A DNA stretch of 50,633 nucleotides from Lachnospiraceae bacterium (GTDB taxonomy: Bacteria > Bacillota > Clostridia > Lachnospirales > Lachnospiraceae), in assembly GCA_022792335.1 (NCBI GenBank), contig JAAWAV010000011.1:1-50633 (forward strand). The letters are read 5' to 3'. The position numbers and the translations under genes are program-made. The notes beneath the pieces were generated by a model. It was not told the origin of the DNA, did not search any database, and saw nothing but the letters and a program-made list of their open reading frames with translations. This document shows positions 38,479 through 38,969 of the stretch, in pieces (the first letter of the stretch is position 1; every line of letters begins with the position of its first letter).

Positions 38479-38627
38479 GAATTTCCTTCCTCCTAAAATA
38501 ATTTTCCGTATTTTATGTAAAACACAAACTACTCTTATTCTATCGCTTTCCTCCTTCTCTGTAAAGGACATTTTCTTCTAAGTTTCTCCATAGTAACCAT
38601 CAAATTTTTTCTTTCTTATTAAGTAAC

Positions 38628-38905
38628 GGTACCGTCGCTTGACAAAGACATACACGCCCTGAACCACGATATTTGCTTGATTTTCTGCGTTATCCTTAGT
38701 CGGTGGTCCGGTACACCTCCATCGTCTGCCTTGAAAATCAAGCAAATATCAGTGGTCAGGGTTGAAAAGTCGAACAGGGATGAAATTCAGCCCCTGCAAA
38801 GCACTTGACCGACGCGTACTGGACGTACGCGGAGTGAAAGTAACGCCGCAGGAGCTGAATTTCCCCCTTTTTCGACCGTGCGTGCTCTTATCAGGCGACG
38901 GTATC
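38628..38905. other. 278-bp three-way-junction palindromic element
   Basis: P1 pairs 628-656 with 877-905 (coordinates minus 38000); it has an 8-bp core ACCGTCGC/GCGACGGT and about eight transition-type mismatches. P2 starts at the very next base: 657-685 pairs with 733-761, 28 pairs with two single-base bulges. Seven bases later P3 runs 769-876: GTCGAA/TTCGAC, GGG/CCC, GAAATTCAGC/GCTGAATTTC, CCTGC/GCAGG, CACT/AGTG and CGCGTAC/GTACGCG with a 5-base loop. P3 ends where the P1 return strand begins. No credible protein is encoded. It may be a mobile palindromic element (MITE-like) or a structured RNA. Confidence 0.8.
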
Positions 38906-38941: not shown

Positions 38942-38969
38942 TTGACTTCGCCATTTGATTTGTTATACT
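38942..38969 (+). promoter_or_regulatory. Promoter of the ftsH operon
   Basis: TTGACT (38942-38947), 16-bp spacer, TATACT (38964-38969) with extended -10 TG at 38961-38962. It lies 37 bp past the three-way element. Confidence 0.8.

What the first reader, a model, noticed from the sequence alone, without database searches (positions are those of the whole stretch)
38628..38905. A 278-bp element that folds into a three-way junction with 0/7/0-base linkers
Between ackA and ftsH lies a block with no credible gene that folds into three stems with almost no unpaired bases at the junction. P1 runs 38628-38656 with 38877-38905. P2 begins at the next base (38657-38685 with 38733-38761, 28 pairs, two single bulges). 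P3 spans 38769-38876 and ends at the base before the P1 return strand. P1 has about four mismatches that read as G-U on one strand and four that read as G-U on the other. That balance suggests decay of a DNA palindrome by transitions more than selection on one RNA strand. It could be a MITE-like mobile element, a recombination substrate, or a structured RNA. I know of no described family with this shape.
Basis: partly seen in the sequence, partly recalled or inferred. Interest (0 to 1): 0.85.

Follow-up and report, generated by a model that had tools for sequence, protein, structure and literature searches.

The report
Three-armed hairpin mobile DNA element
The block between ackA and ftsH is one copy of a small, probably gene-free mobile DNA element, found in many related bacteria, whose long hairpin stems keep changing sequence while staying paired and whose two hairpin tips carry the same unusual, strictly kept motif.

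Summary
In detail: three stems with 0/7/0 linkers, far beyond shuffles (z -12 and -13). The element is 38630-38903 (274 bp). The window's genome holds 6 full-length copies plus truncated, shortened and TIR-only ones: a MITE. A TA target duplication is supported at three sites with both flanks, but not shown for the window copy. The same two-arm plan occurs in 12 genomes of 9 genera of one family. Over 11 representatives, 64 of 97 pairs change on both sides and 91.7% of cells pair; 0 of 500 shuffles match. G-U and A-C mismatches balance, favouring folded DNA over one RNA strand. Stem strands are 54-58% identical between subfamilies, tips 83-86%. P2 and P3 carry the same tip, inverted: a ladder of tandem G.A mismatches kept in 33 of 35 arms at each of four positions. 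That tip also caps one-arm CTAG-ended palindromes, some in other families and a viral contig. No autonomous partner was found. New variant of a known kind.

The parts
38630..38903 (.). whole element (274 bp), ends TACC...GGTA; the outer TA on each side may be the target duplication (shown for relatives, not for this copy)
   Evidence: copy alignment and flanks; empty sites
38630..38656 (+). P1 left strand = left terminal inverted repeat
38657..38685 (+). P2 stem, left strand
38686..38732 (-). P2 tip; on the - strand it reads as the conserved G.A-ladder tip; 3 nt missing from its inner helix in this copy
38733..38761 (+). P2 stem, right strand
38762..38768 (.). 7-nt linker, the only unpaired bases at the junction
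38769..38797 (+). P3 stem, left strand
38798..38847 (+). P3 tip; + strand reads as the conserved G.A-ladder tip
38848..38876 (+). P3 stem, right strand
38877..38903 (+). P1 right strand = right terminal inverted repeat
38537..38565 (-). promoter-like site on the ackA side (TTTACA-17-TAGAAT), outside the element
   Evidence: 2 sites found in the region, 1.1 expected; this flank aligns with 3 other species of the genus
38942..38969 (+). promoter-like site on the ftsH side (TTGACT-16-TATACT), outside the element
   Evidence: this flank aligns with 3 other species of the genus

Best explanation
It is a non-autonomous transposable element (a MITE) with terminal inverted repeats (P1) that most likely inserts at TA and duplicates it. 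Shown: many copies, TIRs, TA at most full-length ends, some clear empty sites, stems that stay paired by double changes across genera, and two arms (P2, P3) that are inverted relatives with the same conserved non-Watson-Crick tip. Inferred: a cut-and-paste (DDE-type) transposase encoded elsewhere acts on P1 in trans; IS630/Tc1-mariner-like is the first guess because of the TA duplication. The arms are kept because the element works, or survives, as folded DNA. The tips are kept because a ladder of tandem G.A pairs forms on one strand of each arm; since the arms are inverted, either single strand shows one proper tip. Internal deletions at short repeats then yield the shorter hairpins and the 45-59 bp TIR-TIR palindromes seen in the same genomes.
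For: Copies: 30 BLAST matches in the own genome, 6 full length (the window copy and five at 94-96%); TIR pattern 14 forward/12 reverse hits, 0 in the reversed-pattern control. TA duplication: adding TA improves the empty-site alignment with both flanks at G007b, G007c and, for 1 of 3 comparators, G005b; TA also lines up beside one aligned flank at C43 and C44c and, by eye, at C27 against a paralogous stretch. The window copy is absent from the aligned ackA-ftsH gaps of 3 species of the genus. Covariation: (64 of 97 pairs with a two-sided change; slid controls pair 35-40% of cells against 91.7%). No + strand G.U excess: 30 G.U, 46 A.C events; 27 and 23. P2 found by the P3 model on the opposite strand. 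Tip. Shortened copies with short shared sequences at several junctions (read by eye).
Against: No autonomous partner: no DDE_3 (PF13358) match in 4 hosts of the genus; the one in G013 has unrelated ends. No TIR pair at 0.8-3 kb among the listed hits of the own genome (list cut, 3-mismatch hits incomplete) or of G329, one 3.1-Mb contig. Empty sites: of 18 copies tried, 6 support TA (3 with both flanks), 8 are uninformative (C3, C9, C13b, C14, C37, C14b, C15, G005d), and 4 read otherwise where a flank aligns: the window copy C34 (TT in G009 and G010), C18 (AA in G006 and G007), C29 (TT) and C44b (CG). All comparators are other species, so later substitution is possible. At G007c there is a further small length difference beside the site; at G005b two of three comparators do not show TA. 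C29 and C32 lack TA on the right, and 13 of 28 short palindromes lack TA at one end or both. P3 alone shows more A.C than G.U events (23 to 9). Movement itself was not observed.
Confidence: 0.72

Rival explanations
1. A REPIN-like element: a single-strand (HUH/Y1 or other) host-encoded enzyme recognises the folded hairpin tips and moves the element as single-stranded DNA, as RAYTs are thought to move REPINs.
For: Two inverted arms with the same structured tip, no autonomous element with the same ends found, conservation concentrated in the tips, tip shared by elements with different ends.
Against: TA target duplication and long TIRs are not REPIN features (recalled). Tipless TIR-TIR palindromes are also numerous, so tips may not be needed to spread.
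Confidence: 0.15
2. A structured RNA (sRNA or processed mRNA element) spread by transposition and kept for its RNA function.
For: Stable fold, strong covariation, and a conserved non-canonical tip of the sort seen in structured RNAs.
Against: No sense-strand G-U excess (27 G.U, 23 A.C); few one-sided changes (13 cells by my sum of the table, against 189 two-sided); nothing for the element at Rfam gathering scores nor a credible hit at E up to 5; the two tips are sense on opposite strands.
Confidence: 0.1
3. Neutral upkeep: the stems stay paired not by selection but because replication template switching corrects imperfect palindromes; only the TIRs matter.
For: Two-sided changes greatly outnumber one-sided ones; template switching is reported to create and maintain hairpins (PMC8794818, title and start of abstract in the listing).
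Against: It cannot explain conserved mismatches in the tip (33 of 35 arms at each of four G.A positions), which correction would erase.
Confidence: 0.3
4. Chance structure or decayed gene.
For: None found; the ORFs were not tested by a family search.
Against: 0 of 200 shuffles on each strand; multi-genus family with covarying stems.
Confidence: 0.005

Closest known systems
Correia/NEMIS elements of Neisseria and RUP of pneumococcus (bacterial MITEs)
   Same: Small, gene-free, TIRs, TA at the ends and target duplication, highly paired, multi-copy (table and passages of PMC2229807).
   Different: Those are about 107-155 bp with one long stem-loop; here 274-281 bp with three stems, two inverted arms and a conserved mismatch-ladder tip. 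RUP has a proposed IS630-Spn1 partner; none found here.
CIR repeats of Caulobacter/Brucella
   Same: Two long inverted-repeat arms joined by a linker, with a conserved motif exposed at a hairpin end (PMC2229807 passages).
   Different: CIRs have no TIR in that table; their motif is a GANTC methylation site, not a G.A ladder.
REPINs/REP-RAYT
   Same: Two inverted, related hairpins in one unit; possible supply of the enzyme in trans.
   Different: No closing P1 stem or TA duplication in REPINs (recalled; PMC3116915 seen only as a search listing).
CTAG-ended one-arm palindromes found here (L248, L262, L266, L267, L241, L304)
   Same: Same G.A-ladder tip, palindromic ends that contain TA.
   Different: One arm, 164-166 bp, different TIRs; target duplication not tested.

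Membership tests
MITE (general) | multi-copy, short, no transposase gene | tested here: met
   length 274-281 bp; no protein-family search was run on the internal ORFs
MITE (general) | terminal inverted repeats | tested here: met
   P1
MITE (general) | target-site duplication (TA), for the family | tested here: met
   3 sites with both flanks (G007b, G007c, G005b) and 3 weaker of 18 copies tried; 8 uninformative, 4 read otherwise
MITE (general) | target-site duplication (TA), for the window copy itself | tested here: inconclusive
   G009 and G010 have TT where TA is expected; the left flank does not align at the site
MITE (general) | autonomous partner sharing the ends (usual, not required) | tested here: not met
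   none found; genus genomes are incomplete and lists were cut
IS630/Tc1-mariner-derived MITE | TIRs shared with an IS630-type transposon | tested here: not met
   PF13358 in 0 of 4 genus hosts; the single G013 match has other ends; so not filed as IS630-derived
REPIN/RAYT | RAYT (Y1) gene in the host | not tested
   no genome searches left
REPIN/RAYT | no target duplication (recalled) | tested here: not met
   with the exceptions
Known structured RNA (Rfam 15) | match to a covariance model | tested here: not met
Structured RNA in general | strand-biased G-U with covariation | tested here: not met
   covariation yes, bias no
Structured RNA in general | discrete transcript | not testable with these tools
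   no expression data

The most novel reading that the evidence does not exclude
A class of mobile DNA in Clostridia whose recognised part is a folded single-stranded DNA hairpin tip with a strict ladder of tandem G.A pairs. Unrelated TIR families have been captured under the same tip, and the two-arm form carries the tip twice, inverted, so that either strand presents one. An unknown protein would read the tip and move or protect the element.
Probability: 0.25. Interest if true: 0.85.

Novelty: new variant of a known kind. Interest (0 to 1): 0.58.

Why it matters
Small palindromic repeats are common in bacteria, and what moves them and why they fold is mostly unanswered. Here stems turn over almost completely between subfamilies while pairing is kept, and a defined non-Watson-Crick tip is kept nearly letter for letter across elements with different ends. 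That gives a concrete bait for finding the protein or process that reads DNA hairpins, and a natural series (full, one arm lost, TIR only) to test which parts are needed.

Tried and rejected
Phage and plasmid collections: no match for the window element, the one-arm G295 element or the G256 element (plasmids only). The exact-TIR pattern gave 0 viral contigs. Class-wide pattern searches were poorly designed: the first required a gap that misses normal two-arm P3 tips; its 5 of 391 genomes are the own genome, three with real one-arm tips outside the family (G506, G661, G761), and G677, which looks like chance. The stricter second found only the own genome, 1 of 392. Most of the 33 viral-contig hits look like chance by eye; L286, L294, L289, L298 and L304 have real-looking hairpins, and only L304 passed the stricter pattern.

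A lead that G295 held an autonomous element (two inverted hits about 1.2 kb apart) fell: they are two one-arm copies, and each of five other stretches fetched has a single copy. Neighbour genes: among the 25 largest clusters shown for 84 copy loci, the largest are frames through the elements; real genes recur only in small clusters (ABC-ATPase-like frames in 7 loci, others in 2-4, some being one place fetched twice), and I recognised no transposase by eye. Comparators used for C27 (L120, L121) are paralogous terminator-like stretches, not orthologous loci, so that case counts less.

Literature: searches showed no description of this family in their listings; the library is open-access only. 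Seen: PMC10969869 and PMC2229807, passages; PMC8794818 and PMC3116915, listing with start of abstract; the rest, listings.

Dropped rows: 4 arms (G163, G334, G342, G414) were left out of the strand count but kept. The 11 representatives were chosen one per genome (G006 left out as near-identical to G000; G332 is cut by a contig end). One-arm sequences were found through a model of P3, so their conservation is partly ascertained; the 11 P2 arms were not chosen that way.

Full report
What is in the window. The block 38628-38905 folds as described. Aligning copies moves the ends in by two bases: the element is 38630-38903, TACC...GGTA. It sits in the divergent gap between ackA and ftsH, between two promoter-like sites that lie outside it (2 found, 1.1 expected). 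Those flanks align with three other species of the genus (G004, G009, G010) whose gap lacks the element.

A repeat family. In the window's own genome (2.67 Mb, 61 contigs, 88% complete) BLAST gives 30 matches. Six are full length: the window copy, C29, C44, C16, C3 and C27; the five others are 94-96% identical to it. Others are cut by contig ends (C13, C41, C21), lack one end (C47, C55, C30) or are internally shortened (C18, C53, C14, C13b, C32, C37). Of 61 genomes searched, own included, 5 have matches: G000, G005, G006 and G007 in the genus and G013 in another genus. Full-length G005 and G007 copies are 67-69% identical to the window copy; G013 copies 74-76% over the middle, with a different TIR. 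A named collection holds the close relatives as Lachnospiraceae MAGs, one labelled Lachnotalea; I therefore take the family of the genome searches to be Lachnospiraceae.

Short forms. A TIR pattern with up to 3 mismatches finds 61 forward and 71 reverse hits in the own genome, against 23 and 19 for the reversed pattern. Of 20 such places fetched, 7 hold TIR-TIR palindromes of 46-59 bp and 5 hold 77-102 bp forms; the rest gave none or a doubtful one. G013 has 31 and 36 hits of its own TIR, 0 in the control; 16 places fetched because their hits seemed to pair hold palindromes of 45-52 bp (15) or 70 bp (1). Of these 28 short forms, 13 lack TA at one end or both. Junctions of several shortened copies fall on short sequences shared by the two sides (read by eye), so microhomology deletion is likely. 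Whether short forms then moved on their own is not known.

Target site. Eighteen copies were tried against other species. Adding TA to the joined flanks improves the alignment with both flanks at G007b (+9), G007c (+5.5) and G005b with one of three comparators (+9.5); TA lines up next to one well-aligned flank at C43 and C44c; C27 agrees, by eye, with two paralogous stretches. Four read otherwise where a flank aligns: the window copy (TT in two species), C18 (AA in two), C29 (TT, and its own right end is TT) and C44b (CG). Eight are uninformative. C29 and C32 do not end in TA on the right. I take TA duplication as likely for the family and open for the window copy.

Covariation. With one representative per genome (11 sequences, alignment A3) and a structure written from the G000 copy, 91.7% of 1052 cells pair, 64 of 97 pairs have a two-sided change and 189 cells carry one. 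0 of 500 shuffles reach any of the five measures, and sliding the partner by 1-3 columns drops pairing to 35-40%. The structure came from one of these sequences, which favours it, but the gap is very large. One-sided changes are rare (13 cells by my sum of the table).

DNA or RNA. In 19 copies the stems show 30 distinct + strand G.U events and 46 A.C events (binomial p 0.085; P1 12 and 15, P2 9 and 8, P3 9 and 23). In 31 arms read in tip-sense orientation the count is 27 G.U, 23 A.C. Neither favours an RNA strand. Rfam gives nothing credible.

Two inverted arms, one tip. A covariance model of the P3 arm finds P2 on the opposite strand, and only there, in 11 of 11 two-arm elements tested, E 9e-10 to 3e-16. 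That alone is weak on orientation, since the model also matches the reverse strand of P3 itself in 8 of these 11, the arm being palindromic. The tip letters settle it: they align in the inverted orientation. Over 35 arms (11 P2, 12 P3, 12 one-arm or unresolved) the paired-position table reads: A.G and G.A in 33 of 35 at each of positions 2, 3, 6 and 7; C.A 35 of 35; G.A 32 of 35; G-C 35 of 35; A.G 32 of 35; Watson-Crick with differing pairs in 30, 33 and 34 of 35 at positions 1, 8 and 11; positions 9-10 are Watson-Crick in about half and G.A in most others. Conserved letters are mostly the mismatches while several Watson-Crick positions vary, which is what a folded non-canonical structure predicts; a site read as double-stranded DNA has no evident reason to keep GA on both sides of the same strand. 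Between subfamilies the tips are 83% (P2) and 86% (P3) identical, the P2 and P3 stem strands 54-58%, P1 73-75%.

Distribution. The P3 model hits 24 of 397 family genomes, own included, at E 1e-5 under strict filters. Two-arm architecture was checked in L254, L255, L256, L257, L258 (right end cut by the contig), L259 and L261 besides four genomes of the window's genus and G013: 12 genomes, 9 genera. A second class has one arm, 162-166 bp, and ends in CTAG (L248, L262, L266, L267, L241) or in TTAG/TTAC (L265, L263), with the same tip. Four further weak hits (L264, L235, L237, L239) gave no clear ends. Exact-pattern hits with real-looking hairpins lie in two other families of the class (G506; G661 and G761) and in viral contigs, L304 being a CTAG-ended 166-bp example. 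The CTAG ends contain TA, so CTAG may be TA with a preferred context; this was not tested.

What moves it. No PF13358 match in G000, G005, G006 or G007; the G013 match has unrelated ends. No TIR pair at 0.8-3 kb among listed hits in G000, nor in G329, a single 3.1-Mb contig with 27 TIR hits. No transposase recurs, by eye, in the 25 largest gene clusters beside 84 copy loci. The close likeness of the G000 copies suggests fairly recent activity, so an enzyme should exist or have existed.

Judgement. Mobile element of MITE kind: near certain. TA duplication: likely for the family. Trans mobilisation by a DDE transposase at P1: the most likely mechanism but inferred. Function of the tips: unknown in detail; folded DNA is favoured by the strand balance, by the conserved mismatches and by the inverted doubling. 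The listings show no description of the family.

Noticed in passing
L248 1691-1854 and 2852-3015; L249-L253; L262, L266, L267, L241, L304: A separate class of one-arm palindromes (164-166 bp, CTAG ends) with the same G.A-ladder tip, in several genomes of the family and one viral contig.
   Followed up: partly
G000:C12:2337-2382, C43:46085-46130, C48:3507-3552, C32:9559-9604; G013 L168-L183: 45-59 bp TIR-TIR palindromes; several in G013 seem to share one deletion junction, so either recurrent deletion or spread of a tipless form.
   Followed up: partly
L007 (G000:C13:1), L008 (C41 end), L012 (C21 end), L258, L260: Copies sit at contig ends, so these repeats seem to break assemblies and copy numbers are likely underestimates.
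   Followed up: no
L120, L121, L006: Recurrent AATAGCGCC...GGCGCTATTTTT hairpin stretches near copy C27, resembling (recall) type I toxin-antitoxin terminators.
   Followed up: no
L040: Copy G007c interrupts a gene whose product looks (recall) like a HEPN/HI0074-type protein.
   Followed up: no
L003 and other G000 copies versus L039, L036: Left and right TIRs keep a consistent internal difference (GGAC against GAGC) in G000, G005 and G007, a possible functional left/right distinction.
   Followed up: no
L258 versus L003: G332, another genus, has the window genus's P1 type and is 84% identical over its 268 bp; other between-genus values are 69-83% except G013/G256 (92%) and G329/G355 (85%). Horizontal transfer is possible.
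   Followed up: partly
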